DNA of 64,000 nucleotides, taken from NCBI RefSeq assembly GCF_011683955.1, contig NZ_JAAQPI010000005.1:186001-250000 (forward strand), written 5' to 3'. The notes beneath the pieces are model-generated. The model was not told where the DNA came from and did not search any database. It worked only from the letters and a program-made list of their open reading frames with translations. Shown one piece after another: positions 15,226 through 25,785 of this stretch; position 1 is the first letter of the stretch, and each line of letters opens with the position of its first letter. The stretch comes from Pseudomaricurvus alkylphenolicus. GTDB lineage: Bacteria > Pseudomonadota > Gammaproteobacteria > Pseudomonadales > Cellvibrionaceae. The position numbers and the translations under genes were made by a program.

Positions 15226-18009
15226 TTACTTGAATTGGTAGCTGAGCGTGAGGCCGTAAGTCCGTGGCGGTTGGTAGATCGCATCGAACCCCTCCGGAGT
15301 GATAAATGTCCCGGAGGAGGTTTTAATCGCTTCGTCGGTCAGGTTATTCACAAACGCTTCCACCGACCAGCTTCCCTTATCCGGGCTGTAGAACAAACTC
15401 AAGTCATAGGTTTGGTAGGCGTCCTGCACGGCCAGGCCGTTCACGCCATCGGGGGCGCTGTCGAATACGCCGGGCGCTAGTTTGTCGCGATTGTAAATGT
15501 CCAAAAAGTACTGGTCAGAGAAGGTGGCTTTTAATCTGGAAGTCAGTATACCGGCTGCCACTTGGAAGTCGTGCTCGTAAATCAGTGTCAGCTTCCAGTC
15601 CGGTGTTCTAACCGGGGCGTTGCCGGAGAGGTCTACAATATCCTGTTGTGCGGCTTCATCTCCCGCTGCGTAGTCATTAAACAGATTGCCAAAAAGCGTA
15701 TCCGGAGTCTGAAAATTGTCGAATTCCGCATCCATTAGCGATACGGCCATTTGCACAAAATCCACGTCGCTAATGGCCCAATCCATTTCCACCTCCAGCC
15801 CGTTGACCCTGGCCTTGGCGGCGTTGCGCACGATAGTACTGGTCACGCGATCCACAATGCCATCGCCGTCGTTATCAAAGTGATCGCGGTCTGAAAACTG
15901 CAGGTCTTTGTAGTGGGCGGAAAAGAGCGCCGCGTTTAAGCGCATATGGCCATTGAGAAGTTTGGACTTCAGCCCCAACTCGTAGTTGATGACTTCTTCC
16001 GGGTCGGCTTCATTGCCCCGGTCCTGAATATGCCCCGATTTGAATCCTGTGGTGGCGGAGGCGTAGAGCATAATATCTTCATCGACATCGTATTCATACC
16101 TCAGGAGACCACTGGTATTGCGCCAAGTGGCCGAATAGTCGTTGACCTGCCTTACCCAGCAAGCCTCATCACCGATGCCCTCGCTGGTGCCATTATCGTA
16201 GGGTTGGCCGGCATCGATGGCCGCCTGAGCGCCGGGGTCGGCGTATATCTGGTCGGGACTCGGAGCCCCGGGACCAATAGAACCCGGCTCCAGGTAAGGG
16301 CCGACTGCAGTCACTCGGCAATTGAGGCTGCGGCCCCTGTTGTCTGATTTGGTATCTTCGGTAAAACGTACACCTCCAGTCAGACGGCTGCTGGCGTTAA
16401 GATCGTAGGTGCCCTGAGCATAGAAGGCCTTGGCCTCCACCTGTCGATCAGGCTGCACAAAAAAGGCTACGCCGGCGCCCGGGTCATCACTGATATAGCT
16501 GGTGGTGTTGGTCAAGTCTCCGCCACCATCGTTGTCGGCCTGGTCGATGGTAAAGACAATGTCATTTTTTTCACGAGAGTAAAATGCACCGACAATCCAG
16601 CGCAGTTGTTCGCTATCGCTGTTGACCAGCTGCAACTCATGGGAATGCACTTTAAAGGTTGAACTGACCGTGCGGCGCTGTTCGTAATTACCGCTACGCC
16701 CGCGATCCACATCGAAAGCCTGTTCCCGGGTCATTTTTGCCGTGCCCAGCATGTAGCTGAGGGTGAGGTCGTTGGCGAAGGTGTAGTCGACCCTTGAACG
16801 AATAACGTCGTTGGTCAAGTCGATAAAACCCGGTGTGTCTGAGACCGTTATCCAGTGACCCTTTTCTACCAGCGAGGGATCGAGTTCGGTCACGCTGGTG
16901 CCTCGGTCCGTATAGCGTTCAGCGCTGATAAAGGCGGTTAAACGTTCATGAGGTTGCCACTGCAGCGACAGGCGGCGTGAATACTGGTCCTCCGCGTAGG
17001 GTGCCCGGGCATCGGCAGTAGCTTGTTGATAAACACTGAGATCAGCATCATCGGTTGGATACTGTGGGCCGAGGCCCGCGTAATCCGTCACCAGATCTGC
17101 GTAGGGATCATGCTGGTCGAAGGCAACGGCGGCACGCACCGCCAGAGTTTCAGAGATCGGCAGGTTGAGCATGCCACGAGCCGCCCGACGCTGGAAATTG
17201 CCCATGGATACTGAGGTGTGGGCGTTGAATTCGTCAAACTGAGGTCGCCGGGTCAGAATGTTAATGCTTCCCGAGGTGGCGTTGCGGCCGTAGAGTGTGC
17301 CCTGCGGCCCCCGCAGCACTTCGACTCGGTCAACATCGTAAAGCAAGGCCGCAGCCCCCTGGGCGCGGGGTGAATAGATGCCATCTACATGAAAGGCGAC
17401 CGGTCCGTCGGCGATCTCGGTAATGTTCGTTTGGCCGATGCCTCGTAGTTGCACCAATAATGCGGATTGAACGCCGGTATTGGTCATTTCCAGGCTTGGT
17501 ACGATGTCGGTGACATCGCGAATGTCTTTGGCCTGATGGCGATCCAGCATGGTCTGGCTGATGGCGGTGACGGCAATAGGGGTGTCCTGCAGGTCGGTGG
17601 ATCGACGGGTCGAGGTAACAACGATTTCCTCAATGATTCGGGGCTGGCGCCGTTCCGGCTCCTGTTTGTGGGCCTTCTTCTCTACCGGCGGCAGAATGGT
17701 GATTCCCAGGTCGGGGGTAATTCGAAACCGCAGTCCGGTACCGTCCAGCAGTTGTTCCATGGCCTGGTGCAGGCCGAGTTCACCGGAGATAGCGGGGCTG
17801 GTAAAACGGGTCAGCTGTTCGGAGATACCGAAGATATTTGTATCTGCCTGTTCGGACAGCTGCAGCAGCGCTGCGTCCAGGGGCTGGGCAGGCAAATCAA
17901 TTTGAATAACGGTTTCCTGAATGTCAGGTTGGGCCACCACCAGACTCGAACTCAGGCCGAGCAACGCGGCAAACAGCGGTGAACGAAGGCGGTGAAGTGT
18001 TGGGTGCAT
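15226..18009 (-). CDS. TonB-dependent receptor with STN signalling domain (transducer)
   Basis: A 927-residue receptor. After the signal peptide (1-26) it has an STN domain (about 37-108, with LDAALLQLSEQADTNIF and LLDGTGLRFRI), a linker, a TonB box EEIVVTS (127-133), a plug with VDRVEVLRGPQGTLYGRN-like sequence and a barrel ending YQFK. STN domains touch a FecR-type anti-sigma factor in the periplasm and signal substrate occupancy. Matching fecI and fecR genes lie divergently 372 bp away, forming a FecA/FecR/FecI-type surface-signalling set. Substrate unknown. No copy of the predicted ECF promoter reads toward this gene within its immediate upstream region, which is unusual for such systems. 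Confidence 0.93.
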   Translation of the reverse strand: MHPTLHRLRSPLFAALLGLSSSLVVAQPDIQETVIQIDLPAQPLDAALLQLSEQADTNIFGISEQLTRFTSPAISGELGLHQAMEQLLDGTGLRFRITPDLGITILPPVEKKAHKQEPERRQPRIIEEIVVTSTRRSTDLQDTPIAVTAISQTMLDRHQAKDIRDVTDIVPSLEMTNTGVQSALLVQLRGIGQTNITEIADGPVAFHVDGIYSPRAQGAAALLYDVDRVEVLRGPQGTLYGRNATSGSINILTRRPQFDEFNAHTSVSMGNFQRRAARGMLNLPISETLAVRAAVAFDQHDPYADLVTDYAGLGPQYPTDDADLSVYQQATADARAPYAEDQYSRRLSLQWQPHERLTAFISAERYTDRGTSVTELDPSLVEKGHWITVSDTPGFIDLTNDVIRSRVDYTFANDLTLSYMLGTAKMTREQAFDVDRGRSGNYEQRRTVSSTFKVHSHELQLVNSDSEQLRWIVGAFYSREKNDIVFTIDQADNDGGGDLTNTTSYISDDPGAGVAFFVQPDRQVEAKAFYAQGTYDLNASSRLTGGVRFTEDTKSDNRGRSLNCRVTAVGPYLEPGSIGPGAPSPDQIYADPGAQAAIDAGQPYDNGTSEGIGDEACWVRQVNDYSATWRNTSGLLRYEYDVDEDIMLYASATTGFKSGHIQDRGNEADPEEVINYELGLKSKLLNGHMRLNAALFSAHYKDLQFSDRDHFDNDGDGIVDRVTSTIVRNAAKARVNGLEVEMDWAISDVDFVQMAVSLMDAEFDNFQTPDTLFGNLFNDYAAGDEAAQQDIVDLSGNAPVRTPDWKLTLIYEHDFQVAAGILTSRLKATFSDQYFLDIYNRDKLAPGVFDSAPDGVNGLAVQDAYQTYDLSLFYSPDKGSWSVEAFVNNLTDEAIKTSSGTFITPEGFDAIYQPPRTYGLTLSYQFK

Positions 18010-18381
18010 TGGCTTTCTGTTTTGGTCTTATAAAATGAATGAAAGCACTTTTTTGCGGTATATGGAAGCGTTGCGCCCTAAGGCCACAGGATCTTACGTG
18101 TGTTGGCAGAGAGGGTCTCAGGCAAATAATATGCATATATTTCAATGGGTTACGTTGTTTTCGGGAGTTGTTGTTGAAAACATGGTCGAAAAACTCAAAA
18201 AAACTGAAAATAAAGGAGCGGATTGGGAGGGGGTCTCCGTCTAATGTCAGATGCGTGCGAATCGCCGTCGAAGTCTCCGCCGTGGCAGTGGGGATGGGCG
18301 CTATTCGAGCTATTATCATAATAACAAGTCCGGTTGTTATCTCGTGGGAGTACAAGCCGGGCCTGAGGTTAAAAGTGTCCA
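18010..18381. other. Divergent intergenic region between the STN receptor and fecI
   Basis: This 372-bp gap has no gene that I can support. It contains the candidate ECF promoter at 18215-18242 reading toward fecI and a perfect inverted repeat ATAACAA-gtccgg-TTGTTAT at 18321-18340, about 40 bp before fecI, which could be an operator. Confidence 0.6.
18215..18242 (+). promoter_or_regulatory. Candidate ECF sigma promoter upstream of fecI
   Basis: GGAGCGGATT-N9-TCTCCGTCT. The GGAGCG and CGTC elements are 17 bp apart, matching the -35 and -10 geometry of ECF promoters. The same composite with identical spacing occurs at 20207-20234. Confidence 0.6.
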
Positions 18382-18933
18382 ATGAGACCATCGCCAGGTT
18401 GCAGGGTTGCTCCAGTGAGCCACGATGACAAAGGTGGGTTTGTGCGTGATGTGTATTTGCTCCATCGCGAGGAACTTTGCCGCAATATCGTCAGGAAGTT
18501 TGGTTTCGGCTTTAGCGAGGCTGAGGATATTGTGCAATCTGCTTTTGTGCGTTTTGCGGCCATGGAGTCGCCGGAGTCGGTGGAGAACCCCAGGGCGTTT
18601 CTCTACACCGCCAGCCAGAATATCGCGATTGACCTGAAGCGACATAATCAGGTTGCGCATAAGTATACGCAATACGTTGCCGGCAACGATGCCGAGATAA
18701 CCGACAGCCCGGGACCGGAGCGTCTGGAGGAAGGCCGCCAGCGGCTTGGCATTATCTCGCGGGCGCTCTGGGGTATGCCCAAGAAGCGTCGCCAGTTATT
18801 AATGATGAGTCGTTTTGATGGCTTGTCCTATGCCGAGATCGGTCGCCGGGTGGGGCTGTCGGAATCGGTGGTAAGAAAACATGTGAGCAACGCCCTGGCG
18901 GATTGTCACCGGGCGCTGGAGGCTCGAAGTTAG
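18382..18933 (+). CDS. FecI-like ECF RNA polymerase sigma factor
   Basis: A 183-residue group IV sigma factor. Region 2 spans about residues 28-95 (LCRNIVRKFGFGFSEAEDIVQSAFVRF, followed by PRAFLYTASQNIAIDLKR). Region 4 spans about 125-178 (MPKKRRQLLMMSRFDGLSYAEIGRRVGLSESVVRKHVSNAL). The FLY-T-A-x-N-x-A-x-D signature is typical of FecI. The stop overlaps the start region of fecR, indicating translational coupling. Starts at ATG 18382 or GTG 18415 are both possible; neither has a strong ribosome site. It probably responds to the divergent STN receptor through FecR and, by promoter motif, may drive itself and the receptor gene at 20334. Confidence 0.92.
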   Translation: MRPSPGCRVAPVSHDDKGGFVRDVYLLHREELCRNIVRKFGFGFSEAEDIVQSAFVRFAAMESPESVENPRAFLYTASQNIAIDLKRHNQVAHKYTQYVAGNDAEITDSPGPERLEEGRQRLGIISRALWGMPKKRRQLLMMSRFDGLSYAEIGRRVGLSESVVRKHVSNALADCHRALEARS

Positions 18934-18950
18934 TGATAACGGAAGTGAAG

Positions 18951-19991
18951 ATGCAAACAGAACAACTCAATGCGCAGGCTCGCGATTGGTTTACGTTGAT
19001 GCAGTCCGGCGCCGTGACTGATGTACAGCGGCAACAGCTGCAACAATGGCTGAGTGAAAGCCCGGCTCACGCGCAGGCGTATCGGGAGTATGAGGCGATC
19101 TGGAATGATCTGGGGAATTTGGCAGCGAGTGAAGAGGGGGAGGCGTTGCGGCATTCAGTGGCTCCAGGGATTTTCGCTCGGGTGTTTTCGAGCCTGGCCG
19201 CTAACACCGGCAAGCTCTTTGCGAGTATGACACCCACCGCTGGGGCAGGCGCGGCGGTGGCCGCTACTTTGGTCGTGGCGCTGTTGGTGCTGAGTTTAAG
19301 ACCTCAGCCGGTTGAACGGCAGAGCTTTGTGACGGCCACGAGTGAGGTTAGGGCGTTAACGCTTGAGGATGGCAGTTTGGTGACGCTGGGGGCGAAGTCG
19401 GAATTGAATGTCTGGTTTTCGGATGTGGGCCGGCACATTGAGTTGATTCGAGGGCAGGCTTTTTTTGACGTGAGCAAAGATCCGGCGCGGCCGTTTTGGG
19501 TGCAGTCAGGTGACAGCCTGGTGAAGGTGGTCGGGACGCAGTTTGATGTGAGGCGTGGCAGTAATCGCACACGGGTGGCGGTGGCGGAGGGCATTGTGAA
19601 TGTGTTTGCCGCGGTCGTACAGGGAGAGGATTCTAAACCCACCGGAGATCCGGTGGTGCTTACGGCCGGAAAATCGGTGCAGAAGCCGATGTATCGAGAG
19701 TTCGATGAAGTCAGTGATGTCGCTGTTAAGGATGTGGCCACCTGGCGGCAGGGACGACTGGTTTATCGCAAGGCGAGTCTTGCTGAGGTGGTGGCGGATG
19801 CGAATCGCTATTCCGAGGGGACGATTGCGCTGGGTACGGGGGCATTGAAGGATCTTGAGGTGACGGCGGCATTTAAAACGGATCAGATGGATGTACTGCC
19901 GGAGATGTTGGCGCAGATATTACCGATTGTGGCTTATCGGGAAGAAGGGAATCGGATTTTGATTATGCCTCGGTCTGGGGGTTCTGATTGA
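18951..19991 (+). CDS. FecR-like anti-sigma / signal-transducing protein
   Basis: A 346-residue inner-membrane protein. The N-terminal cytoplasmic sigma-binding part (QARDWFTLMQSGAVT, about 8-60) precedes one transmembrane segment (about 104-122, AAVAATLVVALLVLSL). The periplasmic FecR domain follows (LEDGSLVTLGAKSELNVWFS, RHIELIRGQAFFDVSKDPARPFWV, GTQFDVRR), and a C-terminal secretin/STN-like domain (LAEVVADANRY) contacts the receptor. ATG 18951 is preceded by GGAAG at five bases; frames opening at 18903 or GTG 18933 overlap fecI. It would hold the FecI sigma factor until the STN receptor signals. A strong terminator follows at 20014-20043. Confidence 0.92.
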   Translation: MQTEQLNAQARDWFTLMQSGAVTDVQRQQLQQWLSESPAHAQAYREYEAIWNDLGNLAASEEGEALRHSVAPGIFARVFSSLAANTGKLFASMTPTAGAGAAVAATLVVALLVLSLRPQPVERQSFVTATSEVRALTLEDGSLVTLGAKSELNVWFSDVGRHIELIRGQAFFDVSKDPARPFWVQSGDSLVKVVGTQFDVRRGSNRTRVAVAEGIVNVFAAVVQGEDSKPTGDPVVLTAGKSVQKPMYREFDEVSDVAVKDVATWRQGRLVYRKASLAEVVADANRYSEGTIALGTGALKDLEVTAAFKTDQMDVLPEMLAQILPIVAYREEGNRILIMPRSGGSD

Positions 19992-20013
19992 TTGTTGTTG
20001 CATTTTCCGGTTT

Positions 20014-20043
20014 AAAAAATCGCACTTTTCAGTGCGATTTTTT
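20014..20043 (+). terminator. Rho-independent terminator after fecR
   Basis: AAAAATCGCAC pairs with GTGCGATTTTT around a TTTTCA loop, followed by a run of T. It ends the fecI-fecR transcript and isolates it from the receptor operon at 20334. Confidence 0.88.
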
Positions 20044-20087
20044 TTGCCTGCATTTTTATGATTATGTGGAAGGAGCACTGAAACCAC

Positions 20088-20115
20088 TGTAGCAGCGGGC
20101 TCAGACCGCGACCGA
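20088..20115 (+). repeat. REP-like repeat, TGTAGCAGCGGGCT... type
   Basis: TGTAGCAGCGGGCTCAGACC followed by GCGACCGAT. It is a divergent member of the family found at 23239, 24949 and 25761. It lies in the 342-bp gap between fecR and the next receptor, which otherwise holds the fecR terminator and the ECF-like promoter at 20207. Confidence 0.65.
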
Positions 20116-20206
20116 TGCAAAGAGCCGGATTGGGACTAATTTGACTTAATCCAACGCCATTCGGGAAAGTCCGATATCATCGAGTTCAAACTTTTTTCAA
20201 AAAAAT

Positions 20207-20234
20207 GGAGCGGATTTCTACCGGCTCTCCGTCT
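20207..20234 (+). promoter_or_regulatory. Candidate ECF sigma promoter upstream of the TonB receptor/halogenase locus
   Basis: GGAGCGGATT-N9-TCTCCGTCT, identical in both boxes and in spacing to 18215-18242. It lies 100 bp before the receptor ATG at 20334 and reads toward it. It links this locus to the neighbouring FecI sigma factor. Confidence 0.62.
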
Positions 20235-20333: not shown

Positions 20334-23141
20334 ATGTATAAGAAACACAAGCTTTCCAGTGCTGTACTGGCTGCGGTTACCGCTATGGCCAGTGCACAAT
20401 ATACAGCCGCACAAAGTGGCGAGGTTACAGAGTCTGACAAGGCTTTTGCCAATACCCTTGAAGAAGTGGTTGTACAAGGGATTCGTGGCAGTCTGCAGCG
20501 GTCTATGGATGTAAAGCGCGATAGCAGCGGTGTTGTCGATGCGATTTCTTCGGAGGATATCGGTAAGTTCCCCGATCAGAATCTGGCGGAATCTCTGCAG
20601 CGTATTACCGGTGTTTCAATCGATCGCGCCGGTGGTGAGGGTCAGTTGATTACAGTTCGCGGGTTTGGACCGCAGTTTAATACGGTGCTGGTGAATGGCC
20701 GTCAAATGGCGTCGGAGAATCAGACTCGCGCCTTTAGTTTTGACACCATTTCCGCGGATATGGTGAGCAGCATTAATGTTCACAAAACCTCTACTGCGAC
20801 TCAGCAATCCGGTGGTATTGGTTCTACGGTGAATATTGCTACCGCCAGACCCCTGCAGCTTGATGGTATGAAGCTGGTGGGTAGCGTCAAGGCGTTATAC
20901 GATGAAAACAGCGAGGAAACGACACCCGAATTCTCCGGTTTGTTCAGCAATACCTTCGCTGACGACCGCGTTGGTGTGTTGGTGGCGGTATCACACAAGG
21001 AGAGTGAAACCCGTTTGAATCAGGCTCAAGCCGATGGTTGGTTGGAAAATGTGGGAATACCGCAGGAGCAGTTGAATGGCGGGGCGGGGCACGACGGTAA
21101 TATCTTTTCTCCCCGTAACTACGATACCAAGGTGACGTTTGAAGAGCGCAGCCGTACCAATGCCAATCTGGTTCTGCAGTTTGCCCCTACGGATGAGTTG
21201 GAGTTGACGTTTGATGCGTTGTATTCCGATTTTGATATCGAAGCGGATGCCACGTCCTACGGCCACTGGTTTACGGGTCCGAACATCGAAAATGCGGTGA
21301 CTGACGAAAATGGTACTGTGATCGATTTGTACCAGGAAGTAGGTCTGGCGACGGATTTTCACGCCAAGCAGTTCGACCGTCTGACCGAAACCAAATCTTT
21401 CGGTTTTAACGCGGATTGGCACTTCAGTGATAATCTGAACCTGAAGTTTGACGCTTTCGTGTCCAAGGCCGAGCGCGAGGCCAACAACGGCGGCGGTAAT
21501 CAGTTGTCTTTGATCGGATACGCCAACCGGGTGCGTTTTCAATCCGACGATGCCATTCTGCCTTGGGTGAGCGGCTTCCAGGATCCGGCGGATAATATTG
21601 TCGATGGCGAGGGTATTTCCCGTCCGGTGTCTGACTATCTCGATCCGGCCAATGGTCGTGCTCATGTGATGTTGCGCCGGGGTTGGGAGGTTGAAGATGA
21701 TGTGCAGCAATTCCGGATGGACGGCCTCTGGAATGAGGGCAATGATACCGGTCTGGTGGAGGCACGATTCGGTCTGATGTTCTCCAATGAGACCAAATCG
21801 CTGACCCGGTGGGACAACGAGGGTGTGGGGATTCACTGTACTTTCTGTGGTTACCCTAATTCGCCGGATGTGCCGGATGAGTTTCAGACATTGTTTGATG
21901 CCGGCAGCGACTTTCTCGATGGTATCAGTGGTTCCGGGCGTACCCCTACCGTTTGGTTACAGCACAACGGTGAGCAGCAGTTTTCCTTTCTGGAGGATAT
22001 CAGCGGAGTCAGCTTTGACGCCGTTCGCCGTGATAATTCTTTTGAGGTCGAAGAGGAAACCCTGTCTGCCTACATGGAGATGGATTTCGCCGGTGAGATC
22101 GCCGGAATGCGAATTTCCGCCACTGCCGGTGTCCGCTACGAAAGTACGGATGTAAGGGTCGATGGTACCGAGTCTCCGATCGAGGGTCTGAGTATTCTGG
22201 ACCAGACGGAAATGGTGGCCTCCTTTGGTGCAGCGTCGCCCATCAGTGCAACCTCTGACTATACGGCTTTGTTGCCTAATCTGAGCGTCAATCTGGAGAT
22301 AACGGAAAATCTGGTAGCCCGCTTTGCCGCCTCTCGTACTCTGACCCGCCCGACGCTGGAAAATATGGCGCCGGTGACCAATATCGGTACGACTCGCCAG
22401 GGCGGCAACCTGACCGCTACCGCCGGGAACCCCGAGTTGCAGCCGTTCGAATCGGATAACGTGGACTTGTCCCTGGAGTGGTACTACGACGAATCCAGCT
22501 ATGTGTCTGTGGGTTACTTCCAGAAGGACGTCAATAACTTCATTATCAACGGTACCACCGACCAGACGTTTGTTATCAGCGATGGCAGCTTTCTGACTGA
22601 CCCATCAACGGGTGATGATGTCAACGCACCGGATGCCAATGATCAGGTGGCTGTATTTACCACCACACTGCCCAATAACGGCGAAGCGGCCACGGTGGAT
22701 GGCGTGGAGCTGGCGCTGCAGCATACGTTTGGTGAAACCGGTTTTGGTGTGATTGTTAACGCCACCCTGGTGGACAGCGACGCCGAGTTGGATGCCGCCG
22801 ACATTAACCAGAAGTTTGCCGTTACCGGTCTGAGTGACTCTATGAATCTGGTGGGCTTTTATGAGAAGGGGCCTTTCCAGTTCCGCTTGGCCTATAACTG
22901 GCGTGACAAGTTCCTGCAGTCTCTGACTCAGACCAACGGCGATGGTGTGACTCATGTGGATGAATATGAGCAGTGGGATATGAGTGGCAGTTACGAGATT
23001 AACGATAACCTGATGGTGGTGTTTGAAATTACCAACCTGACGGAAGAGATTGTGACCAAACACGGTCGTTTCGACAATCACTTTCTGTTGGCTGAAGACG
23101 CCGGTCGTCGTTTCGCTCTGGGGCTGAACGCCAAGTTCTGA
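20334..23141 (+). CDS. TonB-dependent receptor of the Xanthomonas/Caulobacter type
   Basis: A 935-residue receptor starting at ATG 20334 after AAGGAGAG; a TTG 15 codons upstream was not used. It has a signal peptide (1-26), TonB box LEEVVVQG (42-49), and a plug beginning GIRGSLQRSMDVKRDSSGVVDAIS and DIGKFPDQNLAESLQRITGVSIDR. That plug is the hallmark of the large TonB-Xanth-Caul family, which often imports carbohydrates or their derivatives. The barrel ends FALGLNAKF. It heads a same-strand series: halogenase-like protein, SapC, DUF6445, sugar porter. A terminator at 23158-23181 follows it, so downstream genes are probably expressed at a lower level. Confidence 0.94.
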   Translation: MYKKHKLSSAVLAAVTAMASAQYTAAQSGEVTESDKAFANTLEEVVVQGIRGSLQRSMDVKRDSSGVVDAISSEDIGKFPDQNLAESLQRITGVSIDRAGGEGQLITVRGFGPQFNTVLVNGRQMASENQTRAFSFDTISADMVSSINVHKTSTATQQSGGIGSTVNIATARPLQLDGMKLVGSVKALYDENSEETTPEFSGLFSNTFADDRVGVLVAVSHKESETRLNQAQADGWLENVGIPQEQLNGGAGHDGNIFSPRNYDTKVTFEERSRTNANLVLQFAPTDELELTFDALYSDFDIEADATSYGHWFTGPNIENAVTDENGTVIDLYQEVGLATDFHAKQFDRLTETKSFGFNADWHFSDNLNLKFDAFVSKAEREANNGGGNQLSLIGYANRVRFQSDDAILPWVSGFQDPADNIVDGEGISRPVSDYLDPANGRAHVMLRRGWEVEDDVQQFRMDGLWNEGNDTGLVEARFGLMFSNETKSLTRWDNEGVGIHCTFCGYPNSPDVPDEFQTLFDAGSDFLDGISGSGRTPTVWLQHNGEQQFSFLEDISGVSFDAVRRDNSFEVEEETLSAYMEMDFAGEIAGMRISATAGVRYESTDVRVDGTESPIEGLSILDQTEMVASFGAASPISATSDYTALLPNLSVNLEITENLVARFAASRTLTRPTLENMAPVTNIGTTRQGGNLTATAGNPELQPFESDNVDLSLEWYYDESSYVSVGYFQKDVNNFIINGTTDQTFVISDGSFLTDPSTGDDVNAPDANDQVAVFTTTLPNNGEAATVDGVELALQHTFGETGFGVIVNATLVDSDAELDAADINQKFAVTGLSDSMNLVGFYEKGPFQFRLAYNWRDKFLQSLTQTNGDGVTHVDEYEQWDMSGSYEINDNLMVVFEITNLTEEIVTKHGRFDNHFLLAEDAGRRFALGLNAKF

Positions 23142-23157
23142 CAGCCCTACACCTTGT

Positions 23158-23181
23158 GGCCGCCTATGGCGGCCCTTTTTT
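23158..23181 (+). terminator. Rho-independent terminator after the TonB receptor
   Basis: GGCCGCC-tat-GGCGGCC followed by CTTTTTT, 16 bases after the receptor stop codon. Confidence 0.85.
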
Positions 23182-23238
23182 CCACGAACACAGGAGAGAT
23201 GAATAGTTTTCAATTCATCCCATTTAGCACTATCCACT

Positions 23239-23263
23239 GTAGCAGCCCGCTCCGAGGGCGACT
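23239..23263 (+). repeat. REP-like repeat, TGTAGCAGCCCGCTCCGAGG... type
   Basis: TGTAGCAGCCCGCTCCGAGG followed by GCGAC, in the gap between receptor and halogenase. It is nearly identical to the copy at 24949-24976, and an inverted copy lies at 25761-25786. Confidence 0.75.
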
Positions 23264-23365
23264 GACTTTGGCAGCATTGCTTAGGCATCAGGAGATTGAC
23301 CAAATATAAATTGAATTAAGAAAAACAGAGCGAAGAAATACAAACAGATAATAAGAGGTACTAAC

Positions 23366-24910
23366 ATGAATAAACCCGTAAAGTCTGTAATCGTCGTCGG
23401 CGGTGGCACCGCCGGATGGATTACTGCCGGCCGTATTGCCGCCAAACATCGCTGCAGCTCTGAGTCTGCAGTGCAGGTGACGCTTATTGAGTCGCCAAAC
23501 ATTAATATCATCGGCGTGGGTGAGGGCACCTGGCCGACCATGCGCAATACCCTGATGAAGTTGGGAATCTCCGAAACGGATTTTATGCGCGCCTGCGATG
23601 CCACCTTTAAACAGGGCGCCAAGTTCGCCCGCTGGGTGGACGGCAGTCGTGACGATTTTTACTACCACCCATTAATGCTGCCCCAGGGCTTTGGTCGTGT
23701 TGACCTGTGCAGCTATTGGCAGGCGCAGCAGGGGAGGGAGTCTTTTTCCAATGCCGTTTGTTTCCAGGAACAGGTGTGTGAGCGGGGGTTGGCCCCCAAG
23801 CTGATCACCACACCGGAGTTTGGATCCGTCGCAAACTATGCGTACCATTTGGACGCTGGAAAATTTGCGCGATTTTTGCAAAATCACTGCGTTAACCAAC
23901 TGGGTGTTCGCCACATACTCGACGATGTCGTCGGTGTGCAAAAAGCGAAGAATGGCGATATCGAATCCCTTAAGACTGCACATCATGGTGACCTCAGCGG
24001 TGACCTGTTTGTGGATTGCACCGGTTTTCGATCCCGGCTATTGGGTGACGAAATGGACGTGCCGTTAGTGGATCGCAGTGACGTACTCTTTATCGACACC
24101 GCCATTGCGGTGCAGGTGCCCTACGAACAAGCGGACGATCCGATCGCGTCTCATACCATCTCGACCGGCCAGGAAGCAGGCTGGATCTGGGATATCGGAT
24201 TGACCCGACGTCGTGGTGTGGGGTACGTATATTCCAGTAAACATACGTCTGAGGAAAACGCCCAGGATACGCTGGCCCAATATGTGGGGCCGGCAATTGA
24301 GCAGCTGGATGTGAGGAAGATTCCCATACGCTCCGGTCATCGTCAGCTATTCTGGAAAAACAACTGCGTGGCCGTTGGCCTATCAGCCGGTTTTCTGGAA
24401 CCCCTGGAGGCTTCTGCACTGGTATTGGTGGAGCTATCAGCGGAGATGTTGGCCGAACAGTTGCCGGCCACTCGCGGGGTGATGGATATCTGCGCACAGC
24501 GGTTTAACGATACCTTTCAATATCGGTGGGACCGCATTATCGACTTCCTCAAGTTGCACTATATTCTCAGCAAACGCACGGATAACGATTTCTGGAATGA
24601 CAATCGCGATCCGACCTCTATTCCCGACAGCCTTCAAGCGCTGATGAGTTTGTGGCAATACCGCTCGCCGGGAGATCAGGATTTTACCAGCAACAACGAG
24701 GTCTTCCCGGCGGCCAGCTATCAGTACGTGCTCTATGGTATGGGTTTTAAAACAGAGACCGCCGCATATGCCCACACTCTGATAGAGCAGGAACTGGCGC
24801 GAGAGCAGTTTGGCAAAAACCGTATGGCAACCGAAAGAGCATTGGCGGGTTTGCCCCGGCACCGCGATCTGATTAACAAGATTCACGAGTACGGCTTCGC
24901 AGCGGTTTGA
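23366..24910 (+). CDS. Flavin-dependent tryptophan-halogenase-like protein
   Basis: A 514-residue protein of the flavin-dependent halogenase superfamily. The FAD-binding GGGTAGW motif is at residues 12-18. The lysine equivalent to the catalytic Lys79 of PrnA is K82 (TFKQGAKFARW), and the glutamate motif FLEPLEAS is conserved near residue 345. The diagnostic W-x-W-x-I-P is present as W-I-W-D-I-G (about 273-278), so the proline is replaced. Homologues sitting beside TonB receptors and SapC in Xanthomonas/Caulobacter-type loci are common and have no proven halogenation product. Whether it halogenates tryptophan, another indole or a sugar-linked aromatic is open. It uses reduced flavin from an unlinked reductase. 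Confidence 0.87.
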   Translation: MNKPVKSVIVVGGGTAGWITAGRIAAKHRCSSESAVQVTLIESPNINIIGVGEGTWPTMRNTLMKLGISETDFMRACDATFKQGAKFARWVDGSRDDFYYHPLMLPQGFGRVDLCSYWQAQQGRESFSNAVCFQEQVCERGLAPKLITTPEFGSVANYAYHLDAGKFARFLQNHCVNQLGVRHILDDVVGVQKAKNGDIESLKTAHHGDLSGDLFVDCTGFRSRLLGDEMDVPLVDRSDVLFIDTAIAVQVPYEQADDPIASHTISTGQEAGWIWDIGLTRRRGVGYVYSSKHTSEENAQDTLAQYVGPAIEQLDVRKIPIRSGHRQLFWKNNCVAVGLSAGFLEPLEASALVLVELSAEMLAEQLPATRGVMDICAQRFNDTFQYRWDRIIDFLKLHYILSKRTDNDFWNDNRDPTSIPDSLQALMSLWQYRSPGDQDFTSNNEVFPAASYQYVLYGMGFKTETAAYAHTLIEQELAREQFGKNRMATERALAGLPRHRDLINKIHEYGFAAV

Positions 24911-24948
24911 TTAGCCAACTCCCCGTGAGCTCAATTTGGGGCAATCCC

Positions 24949-24976
24949 TGTAGCAGCCCGCTCCGAGGGCGACCGA
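24949..24976 (+). repeat. REP-like repeat, TGTAGCAGCCCGCTCCGAGG... type
   Basis: TGTAGCAGCCCGCTCCGAGG followed by GCGACCGAT, between the halogenase-like gene and sapC. Confidence 0.75.
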
Positions 24977-25044
24977 TATCCGGTTGAGTTCAAACATTGA
25001 AATTTTGCTTAAGTAAGCGCATACAATACAGAGAGAAGACTATT

Positions 25045-25785
25045 ATGACTTGCCTGGTCTCACTACATCATAAGCAGCATCGGAATCTTCGGATTAACCC
25101 TCAGGCCGTTGAAACTCAAAACGCCAACCTGCATATGGTACCAGTAGTACTCAGCGAATTTCTAAAACTGGCGGTCCAGTACCCCATTGCGTTCACTAAA
25201 AACCGAGACACCGGCCGCTTTGTCTGTGTCGCCATGCTTGGATTGGAGCCGGGCGAAAACCTGTTTGTGCAAGAGGGAAACTGGGATGCTCTTTACGTAC
25301 CGCTTCAGGTTTCCAGGCAGCCCTTTTTTGTCGGGCAGGAATCGGGCAACGACTCCAATCAGGAAAAACTGGTGGTCTGTGTCGATACTGATCATCCGGG
25401 CGTGAGTGAACAGGGCAGCGAGAGACTGTTTGATGACCAGGGAAGCGACAGTCCATATCTCTCCAGTGCCAAATCGAAGCTGGCAGAACTGTTTCGTGGC
25501 GAGACTGAGATACAAGCATTTACCGATGCGCTGCTGGAGCTAAAACTGCTGCAGCCGATGCGCTTGGAAATCACATTGGAAAACCGGCAATCCCTGACAC
25601 TGCAAGGGATGTACACTATTGACGAAGAGCAGTTCAAACGACTGCCGGACGAGCAACTGTTGGATTTGCGCCATCGGGATTATCTGGCACCGATCCATAC
25701 CATGATCACATCCCTGGGGCAGATCTACGCCCTGGTTCGACGCAAGAACGCGACAAAACCAGTCGCTCTCGGAGCGGGCTGCTAA
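25045..25785 (+). CDS. SapC family protein
   Basis: A 246-residue protein matching the SapC family, named from an S-layer-associated protein: HRNLRINPQAVETQNANLHMVPVVLSEF, YPIAFTKN, LGLEPGENLFVQEGNWDALYVPLQV. ATG 25045 follows GAGAGAAG; the open frame also reaches a TTG at 24997. SapC genes recur beside TonB receptors and halogenase-like genes, but their biochemical role is not established. Unusually, the last eight codons and the stop lie inside an inverted REP-like repeat (25761-25786), so the C-terminal PVALGAGC is repeat-derived. Confidence 0.85.
   Translation: MTCLVSLHHKQHRNLRINPQAVETQNANLHMVPVVLSEFLKLAVQYPIAFTKNRDTGRFVCVAMLGLEPGENLFVQEGNWDALYVPLQVSRQPFFVGQESGNDSNQEKLVVCVDTDHPGVSEQGSERLFDDQGSDSPYLSSAKSKLAELFRGETEIQAFTDALLELKLLQPMRLEITLENRQSLTLQGMYTIDEEQFKRLPDEQLLDLRHRDYLAPIHTMITSLGQIYALVRRKNATKPVALGAGC

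What the first reader, a model, noticed from the sequence alone, without database searches (positions are those of the whole stretch)
18215..20234. Shared ECF-type promoter links FecI to itself and to the TonB receptor/halogenase locus
GGAGCGGATT-N9-TCTCCGTCT occurs at 18215 before fecI and at 20207 before the receptor at 20334, with both boxes identical and the same nine-base spacer. GGAGCG and CGTC are 17 bp apart, as in ECF promoters. No such site reads toward the STN receptor in its immediate upstream region. This suggests that the STN receptor acts as sensor while the sigma factor drives a different receptor and its enzymes.
Basis: partly seen in the sequence, partly recalled or inferred. 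Interest (0 to 1): 0.72.

Follow-up and report, generated by a model that had tools for sequence, protein, structure and literature searches.

The report
Sugar-sensing sigma factor promoter pair
Two matching DNA switches probably let a bacterial regulator turn on its own gene and an outer-membrane nutrient importer, apparently on cue from a second, separate receptor, and the same arrangement recurs beside sugar-digesting genes in related bacteria.

Summary
The sites at 18215-18242 and 20207-20234 are the only matches with two or fewer mismatches in the 8.88-Mb genome. Relatives trim the motif: TCTCC is not conserved; the core is GGAGCGGATT-N13-CGTCTT, an ECF-type -35/-10 pair with 17 bp between GGAGCG and CGTC.

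The core (up to 3 of 16 mismatches) precedes fecI in 20 of 20 rows of the window's FecI clade, 10 of them outside the motif-building set. In 8 of 8 family loci with fecI beside a receptor about 55% or more identical to the window's, both genes carry a site. The 13 other FecI-like matches in this genome lack it. No site reads toward the divergent STN receptor in 6 of 6 loci.

Best explanation: FecI/FecR cell-surface signalling, probably for carbohydrate. An STN receptor senses; FecI activates itself and an STN-less importer. In 7 of 8 testable relatives a site precedes a GH3 gene.

Limits: a terminator-like hairpin separates importer and halogenase in 8 of 8 loci, in some relatives the STN gene lies co-directionally downstream of fecI, and there are no expression data. 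A new variant of a known kind.

The parts
15226..18009 (-). TonB-dependent receptor with N-terminal STN signalling domain (putative sensor/transducer), 927 aa
   Evidence: Pfam barrel 106 bits, plug 61 bits, STN 22.9 bits (below the 28.4 cut-off); orthologues L049 and L052 pass (31.3, 36.1), L055 and L138 do not (22.6, 24.9), L124 has no STN hit; profile of 13 N-termini hits solved signalling domains, best E 5.4e-16
18215..18242 (+). ECF-type promoter-like site upstream of fecI: GGAGCGGATT, CGTC at 18238-18241, 167 bp before the fecI ATG
18382..18933 (+). fecI-like ECF sigma factor, 183 aa
   Evidence: Sigma70_r2 and Sigma70_r4_2; TIGR02937 67.7 bits over cut-off 42.9
18903..19991 (+). fecR-like anti-sigma factor (open frame from TTG; true start probably further in)
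   Evidence: PF04773 73 bits, PF16220 53 bits
20016..20041 (+). terminator-like hairpin with T-run after fecR, before the second site
   Evidence: a clear counterpart in only some relatives
20207..20234 (+). ECF-type promoter-like site upstream of the STN-less receptor: GGAGCGGATT, CGTC at 20230-20233, 127 bp before the ATG
20334..23141 (+). STN-less TonB-dependent receptor (putative importer), 935 aa
   Evidence: TIGR01782 670 bits over cut-off 310; no STN hit
23158..23174 (+). terminator-like hairpin between receptor and halogenase
   Evidence: an equivalent in 8 of 8 loci; 0 of 60 shuffles score as high in 6 of the 8, 2 of 60 in L055, 7 of 60 in L053
23366..24910 (+). flavin-dependent (tryptophan-type) halogenase family protein
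   Evidence: PF04820 414 bits; nearest PDB chain 2pyx, E 1.9e-175
24997..25785 (+). SapC family protein
   Evidence: PF07277 234 bits
25831..26562 (+). DUF6445 protein
   Evidence: PF20043 250 bits
26562..28052 (+). XylE-like MFS sugar porter
   Evidence: PF00083 394 bits; TIGR00879 397 bits over cut-off 237.8; 70-75% identical MFS follows fecI-fecR in L118, L119 and L121-L127

Best explanation
The locus is a FecI/FecR cell-surface signalling system of a carbohydrate-linked type. Step 1 (inferred): an oligosaccharide binds the divergent STN receptor (15226-18009). Step 2 (inferred from the family): its signalling domain acts on FecR and frees FecI. Step 3 (sequence evidence strong, no transcript data): FecI-RNA polymerase uses GGAGCGGATT-N13-CGTCTT-type promoters at two places, before its own gene (positive feedback) and before a second, STN-less TonB receptor that does the bulk import. 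Step 4 (inferred): the halogenase, SapC, DUF6445 and MFS genes downstream are expressed at a lower level by read-through of the hairpin after the receptor gene. The substrate is probably a glucose-type or amino-sugar oligosaccharide.
For: Rarity in the genome. In 144 family genomes the 16-base core with up to 1 mismatch gives 32 matches; all 11 exact ones lie before fecI or the receptor, 9 of the 21 one-mismatch ones before fecI, a receptor or GH3, and the other 12 are near the reversed-control count of 8; 9 of the 11 of these with a locus fall in a mechanical ORF of 120 aa or more. Both sites in 8 of 8 loci, from five genera, receptor site 100-127 bp from the start codon. Ten loci outside the motif-building set: 10 of 10 with a fecI site of up to 3 mismatches. 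FecI tree: 20 of 20 rows of the window clade have the site; in the sister clade 12 of 19 siteless rows show GGRGACGAT at the same spacing; 13 FecI-like paralogues of this genome have 6-8 mismatches. No site toward STN in 6 of 6. In G018 an STN receptor gene is followed by a site and an STN-less receptor. Sites before GH3 genes in 7 of 8 testable loci, 63-136 bp from the aligned start. No Fur box above shuffles.
Against: No transcript or mutant data; sensor and importer roles rest on domain content. In L055, L057, L118 and Porticoccaceae the STN gene lies co-directionally downstream of fecI, so exclusion of the sensor from the regulon is not general. The hairpin argues against simple co-transcription with the enzymes. 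Of 38 named loci, 17 of the more distant ones (L129, L130, L134, L136, L137, L139-L150) have no site of up to 3 mismatches at fecI. In L138, a ninth locus of this layout, the receptor site has 4 mismatches. In L067 (receptor 36% identical) one search found none. L123 has no site before its GH3 (6 mismatches). Among window genes tested no glycoside hydrolase lies beside the cluster; in L052 the tested genes after the block are a two-component pair and an alpha/beta hydrolase, not sugar genes.
Confidence: 0.78

Rival explanations
1. The repeated element is an operator for another regulator (repressor or activator) that controls fecI and the receptor, not an ECF promoter.
For: Two conserved blocks with a variable spacer also fit a dimeric regulator; a LacI-family gene lies about 5.5 kb upstream of fecI in L049.
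Against: The halves are not an inverted repeat once relatives are aligned. The spacing is fixed and the CGTC half is followed by A in 27 of 29. Presence follows the FecI tree, and the sister FecI clade has its own -35 variant. Sites occur in loci with different neighbours.
Confidence: 0.07
2. FecI drives itself and the STN-less receptor, but the STN receptor is also in the regulon through an undetected or indirect route, so this is an ordinary FecA-type loop with an extra receptor.
For: In L055, L057, L118 and Porticoccaceae the STN gene is co-directional downstream of fecI; in L066 a related site (GGGGCGGATC..CGTCTC) lies 254 bp before the aligned start of an STN-type receptor of the sister clade.
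Against: No site toward STN in 6 of 6 divergent loci.
Confidence: 0.2
3. The system senses iron or siderophore as in FecA/FpvA, and the cluster is for iron uptake.
For: The STN receptor resembles siderophore receptors (TIGR01783 152.6 bits, below cut-off 223.5); siderophore and heme receptors are its nearest solved relatives.
Against: No Fur box above shuffles. Neighbours in the window or relatives are sugar-linked: MFS sugar porter, LacI/SIS/NagA-type genes in L049, GH49, GH3, GH30.
Confidence: 0.08
4. The two-site coincidence is chance or a local duplication.
For: The two sites lie 2 kb apart with identical boxes.
Against: Flanks and spacers differ; both sites recur in 8 of 8 loci from five genera.
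Confidence: 0.01

Closest known systems
E. coli FecA-FecR-FecI ferric citrate signalling
   Same: FecI-like sigma, FecR-like anti-sigma, STN receptor; a hairpin after the receptor gene that lowers downstream expression (PMC9249621, passages seen)
   Different: E. coli fecIR is Fur-controlled and not autoregulated, and fecA is the target (PMC9249621, passages); here fecI has the same site as the target, no Fur box was found, and the target receptor lacks STN
Pseudomonas TonB-dependent transducers (FoxA, PupB, FpvA type)
   Same: Homologous signalling domain
   Different: There one receptor both transports and signals and its gene is in the response (PMC11637429, passages seen)
Stenotrophomonas HemI-HemR-HemAD
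   Same: FecIRA-like; autoregulation of the operon was examined, and the text says many ECF sigma factors autoregulate (PMC12772443, passages seen)
   Different: Heme uptake, Fur-repressed, one operon including the receptor
Bacteroides ECF-sigma/anti-sigma controlled SusC systems
   Same: Glycan import by TonB receptors under an ECF sigma factor
   Different: SusCs of those loci carry the STN domain themselves (PMC7782687, passages seen)
Ralstonia PrhA-PrhR-PrhI and Pseudomonas PUMA3 (VreA-VreI-VreR)
   Same: Signalling component apart from transport; sigma drives other genes (PMC1790865; PMC2729926; passages seen)
   Different: Targets there include secretion and virulence genes, not a second importer; VreA has no barrel
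SAR92 laminarin loci flanked by an ECF sigma gene
   Same: L127 is from MAG X_MB111, which PMC10108472 names among those with such a locus (passages seen); it has fecI, fecR, MFS, STN-type receptor, GH3 and GH30
   Different: The passages seen give no promoter or regulon; the figure is not held, so identity of that locus with L127 is likely, not shown

Membership tests
FecI-like ECF sigma factor | Sigma-70 regions 2 and 4, ECF family | tested here: met
FecI-like ECF sigma factor | Adjacent FecR-type anti-sigma gene | tested here: met
   PF04773 and PF16220; FecR follows FecI in 20 of the 20 loci L049-L068
FecI-like ECF sigma factor | Assignment to group ECF243 | not tested
   Group name from PMC9249621; no ECF classifier at hand
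ECF-type promoter | Two conserved elements at fixed spacing | tested here: met
   29 aligned sites, 17 bp between GGAGCG and CGTC
ECF-type promoter | FecI-dependent transcription start just downstream | not testable with these tools
   No RNA data
TonB-dependent transducer (cell-surface signalling) | N-terminal STN signalling domain, plug and barrel | tested here: met
   Window STN 22.9 bits, below the cut-off; L049 and L052 above it, L055 and L138 below, L124 no hit; family profile hits solved signalling domains. The structure prediction did not run to an end
TonB-dependent transducer (cell-surface signalling) | Transducer gene is in the regulon of its sigma factor | tested here: not met
   No site toward STN in 6 of 6 divergent loci; open in co-directional loci
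TonB-dependent transducer (cell-surface signalling) | Transducer also transports the inducer | not testable with these tools
   Needs uptake assays
Fur-controlled iron signalling system | Fur box at fecI or receptor | tested here: not met
   Best 11 of 19 to the E. coli consensus, reached in 153 and 171 of 200 shuffles
TIGR01782 TonB receptor | Score over cut-off | tested here: met
   670 against 310 bits
Flavin-dependent tryptophan-type halogenase | Trp_halogenase domain, catalytic Lys and Glu contexts | tested here: met
   PF04820 414 bits; FKQGAKF at 81 and FLEPLE at 343 (residue roles recalled)
Flavin-dependent tryptophan-type halogenase | GWxWxIP motif (recalled) | tested here: not met
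   GWIWDIG at 272; activity unknown

The most novel reading that the evidence does not exclude
A clade of carbohydrate-linked FecI/FecR systems in Cellvibrionaceae and Porticoccaceae (SAR92 included) uses its own promoter code, GGAGCGGATT-N13-CGTCTT. In a Cellvibrionaceae branch it splits sensing from import between two TonB receptors: the STN sensor stays outside its own regulon, while FecI amplifies itself and the STN-less importer. Swapping the sensor and the hydrolases (GlcNAc-type, GH49, GH3/GH30 loci) retargets one conserved switch to different glycans.
Probability: 0.5. Interest if true: 0.72.

Novelty: new variant of a known kind. Interest (0 to 1): 0.58.

Why it matters
The FecI/FecR signalling described in the papers seen here is mostly for iron, with one receptor both sensing and importing. 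Here a conserved promoter code makes a glycan-linked branch readable from sequence, predicts target genes in marine bacteria including SAR92, and sets up a clean test of whether sensing and import can be separated. It also places a functionally unexplained halogenase/SapC/DUF6445 gene set behind a candidate regulator.

Tried and rejected
Inverted repeat GGAG..CTCC as an operator: not kept in relatives. Iron/Fur control: no Fur box above shuffles. The three own-genome sites with 3 mismatches and the two extra with 1 mismatch to a 14-base core (one place is in both lists): these four places, read in L003, L004, L101 and L102, lie in mechanical ORFs of 127-461 aa, so taken as chance. Exact 17-base pattern in 390 genomes of the order: 0 matches; it could not match the window's own sites, which differ in the last bases, and little is expected by chance either, so it says little. 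Two intergenic one-mismatch sites, G056 (L080) and G101 (L085): next genes are a 177-aa ORF without Pfam hit and an MFS gene, left open. Paper searches joining halogenase, TonB receptor and SapC gave no paper or one unrelated one, listing only.

An error of mine: and the paralogue block, read loci of minus-strand matches unreversed; one search repeats this with the right strand, and only its paralogue and tree results are used.

On it I narrowed the GlcNAc evidence to L049, the MFS identity to 70-75%, the sister-clade motif to 12 of 19 rows, added the L052, L067, L123 and L138 results, and ran, which tests GH3 sites in more loci and gives the hairpin a shuffle control.
Full report
What is there. 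The window is 64 kb of contig 55 of an 8.88-Mb genome. The closest named relatives of its FecI are Cellvibrionaceae and Porticoccaceae, many of them metagenome-assembled. The gene order around the finding is: STN-type TonB receptor (15226-18009, -), then divergently fecI (18382-18933), fecR (18903-19991), an STN-less TonB receptor (20334-23141), a tryptophan-type halogenase (23366-24910), SapC, DUF6445 and an XylE-like MFS sugar porter, all +.

The observation. Both sites exist as written, and no third is found in the window with up to 3 mismatches. In the whole genome three more matches have exactly 3 mismatches, against 1 match for the reversed control. A 14-base core with 1 mismatch allowed gives the two sites plus two others, with 2 in the control. 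The extra places (L003, L004, L101, L102; L102 is the third place as well) lie in mechanical ORFs. At this stringency the candidate regulon in this genome is two promoters.

Comparison with relatives. FecI matches were found in 131 of 144 family genomes. I fetched 20-kb neighbourhoods of 20 of them. In the 8 family loci where fecI sits beside a receptor about 55% or more identical to the window's (window, L049, L050, L051, L052, L053, L055, L057), a site precedes fecI in 8 of 8 (90-254 bp to the aligned start) and the receptor in 8 of 8 (100-127 bp). They come from five genera. The weakest is the L055 receptor site with 3 mismatches of 16 (same genome as L117). The matrix was built from 16 sites, most of them these, so their scores are not independent. 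In L067, with a receptor 36% identical, none was found.

Loci outside the motif-building set. In one search I scanned 38 loci of named genomes (L113-L150, of 79 fetched). L113-L117, L120, L128 and L129 are genomes already seen. Ten are new and fall in the window's FecI clade: L118, L119, L121-L127 and L138; 10 of 10 have a fecI site with up to 3 mismatches. Of the more distant ones L131, L132, L133 and L135 have a 3-mismatch site; L130, L134, L136, L137 and L139-L150 have none, and L129 has none at fecI. In L138, which also has the receptor, the receptor site has 4 mismatches.

Family-wide search. The 16-base core with up to 1 mismatch in 144 genomes gives 32 matches in 23 genomes, with 8 in the reversed control. 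The 11 exact matches are all before fecI or the receptor. Of the 21 one-mismatch matches, 8 are before fecI or a receptor and 1 before a GH3 gene. The remaining 12 are near the control count; 11 of them have a locus, and in 9 of these 11 the site falls in a mechanical ORF of 120 aa or more.

Tree and controls. A tree of 67 FecI-type proteins puts the window FecI in a clade of 20 rows (support 90/83, not among the firmest), all with the site. Its sister clade of 21 rows has 2 with up to 3 mismatches; of the other 19, 12 show GGRGACGAT at the same spacing with CGTC (6) or CGTT (6), 2 more were printed and differ, and 5 with 6-7 mismatches were not printed. The 13 other FecI-like matches of this genome have 6-8 mismatches in 330 bp upstream, shuffle fractions 0.33-1.0. 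Long branches make deeper placements unsure.

The promoter. Twenty-nine sites aligned give GGAGCGGATT-N13-CGTCTT, followed by A in 27 of 29, with A-rich DNA 17-19 bases upstream. Expected starts are near 18248 and 20240 (inference).

Sensor and importer. The divergent receptor has an STN domain. The window copy scores below Pfam's cut-off (22.9 against 28.4); L049 and L052 score above it, L055 and L138 below, L124 has no STN hit. A profile of 13 N-termini matches solved signalling domains of pseudobactin, pyoverdine, HasR and FecA receptors, best E 5.4e-16. The receptor at 20334 shows none. In the six divergent loci the best match toward the STN gene has 5-7 mismatches (shuffle fractions 0.13-0.97), while toward fecI it has 0-1. 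In eight loci with the STN gene co-directional with fecI or its receptor, the best match within 400 bp before it has 5-7 mismatches; there it may be read from another promoter. In G018 the order is STN receptor, site, STN-less receptor. In the sister clade STN-less receptors followed by a halogenase lie after fecR in L058, L059, L061, L062, L064 and L108, and a site precedes them in L059 and L108 (STN absence was tested by Pfam in L059 and L108).

Substrate. In L049 LacI, SIS and NagA-type genes precede the block, and HGSNAT-like, MFS and BadF-type kinase genes follow it; that these form a GlcNAc pathway is my recall. ORFs of similar size and order occur in L050 and L051, of which one was scanned (an MFS). 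In L052 the scanned genes after the block are a response regulator, a histidine kinase and an alpha/beta hydrolase. G018 and G014 have GH49 genes. GH3-ExopC genes are found in loci of both FecI clades. A site with up to 3 mismatches lies 63-136 bp before the aligned GH3 start in 7 of the 8 loci where that region is on the contig (L124, L125, L121, L127, L108, L105, L064; not L123 with 6 mismatches); L119 and L126 are cut off, and L118 and L122 have no GH3 match (Pfam for GH3 in L064, L105, L108, L119, L124, L127). L127, from SAR92 MAG X_MB111, also has GH30; PMC10108472 lists that MAG among those with a laminarin locus and says these SAR92 loci are flanked by an ECF sigma gene (passages seen). 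The window's MFS is 70-75% identical to the MFS after fecI-fecR in L118, L119 and L121-L127, which makes a glucose-type oligosaccharide the first guess for the window. This is inference.

Enzymes. A terminator-like hairpin lies between receptor and halogenase in 8 of 8 loci. In 6 of them 0 of 60 shuffles of the gap score as high, in L055 2 of 60, in L053 7 of 60. Terminator-like sites overall are no more frequent in the window region than in shuffles (11 found, 11.7 expected). PMC9249621 describes a hairpin after fecA that lowers fecBCDE expression. I therefore expect the enzymes to be expressed below the receptor. No site was found before the window's halogenase, MFS or next receptor.

Novelty. 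The parts are known; the combination is a variant. E. coli fecIR and hasI are reported as not autoregulated (PMC9249621), though autoregulation is described as common among ECF sigma factors (PMC12772443). Classical transducers are their own targets (PMC11637429), and SusCs under ECF control carry STN themselves (PMC7782687). PrhA and PUMA3 are precedents for signalling apart from transport. Of all these papers I saw passages only. I saw no description of this promoter code or of the two-receptor split in the listings of searches, which cover the held open-access library only; most listed papers were not opened.

Noticed in passing
window 20087-20115, 23237-23265, 24948-24976: Three intergenic copies of a CTGTAGCAGC-type sequence, REP-like by eye; the first differs most.
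   Followed up: no
window 24179-24199 (halogenase residues 272-278): Halogenase has GWIWDIG where flavin-dependent halogenases usually have GWxWxIP (motif recalled), with Lys and Glu contexts kept.
   Followed up: partly
window 28845-52977: A further TonB receptor is followed by a purine/uracil-type permease, hydantoinase-like genes, a urate oxidase N-domain protein, amidohydrolases, malate synthase and a molybdopterin-binding oxidoreductase, among others: may be a purine catabolism region.
   Followed up: no
G000: This genome is 8.88 Mb while the five same-genus genomes searched are 4.0-5.7 Mb; two of them have no FecI match and the best in the others is 55% identical (G114), against 74% in another genus: possible horizontal gain of the locus.
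   Followed up: no
sister FecI clade, upstream of fecI (L029-L043): 12 rows show GGRGACGAT at the same spacing before fecI: a natural -35 variant for studying co-evolution of sigma region 4 and promoter.
   Followed up: partly
L124, L125, L121, L127, L064, L105, L108, upstream of GH3: The same promoter element stands 63-136 bp before the aligned start of GH3-type genes in 7 of 8 testable loci.
   Followed up: partly
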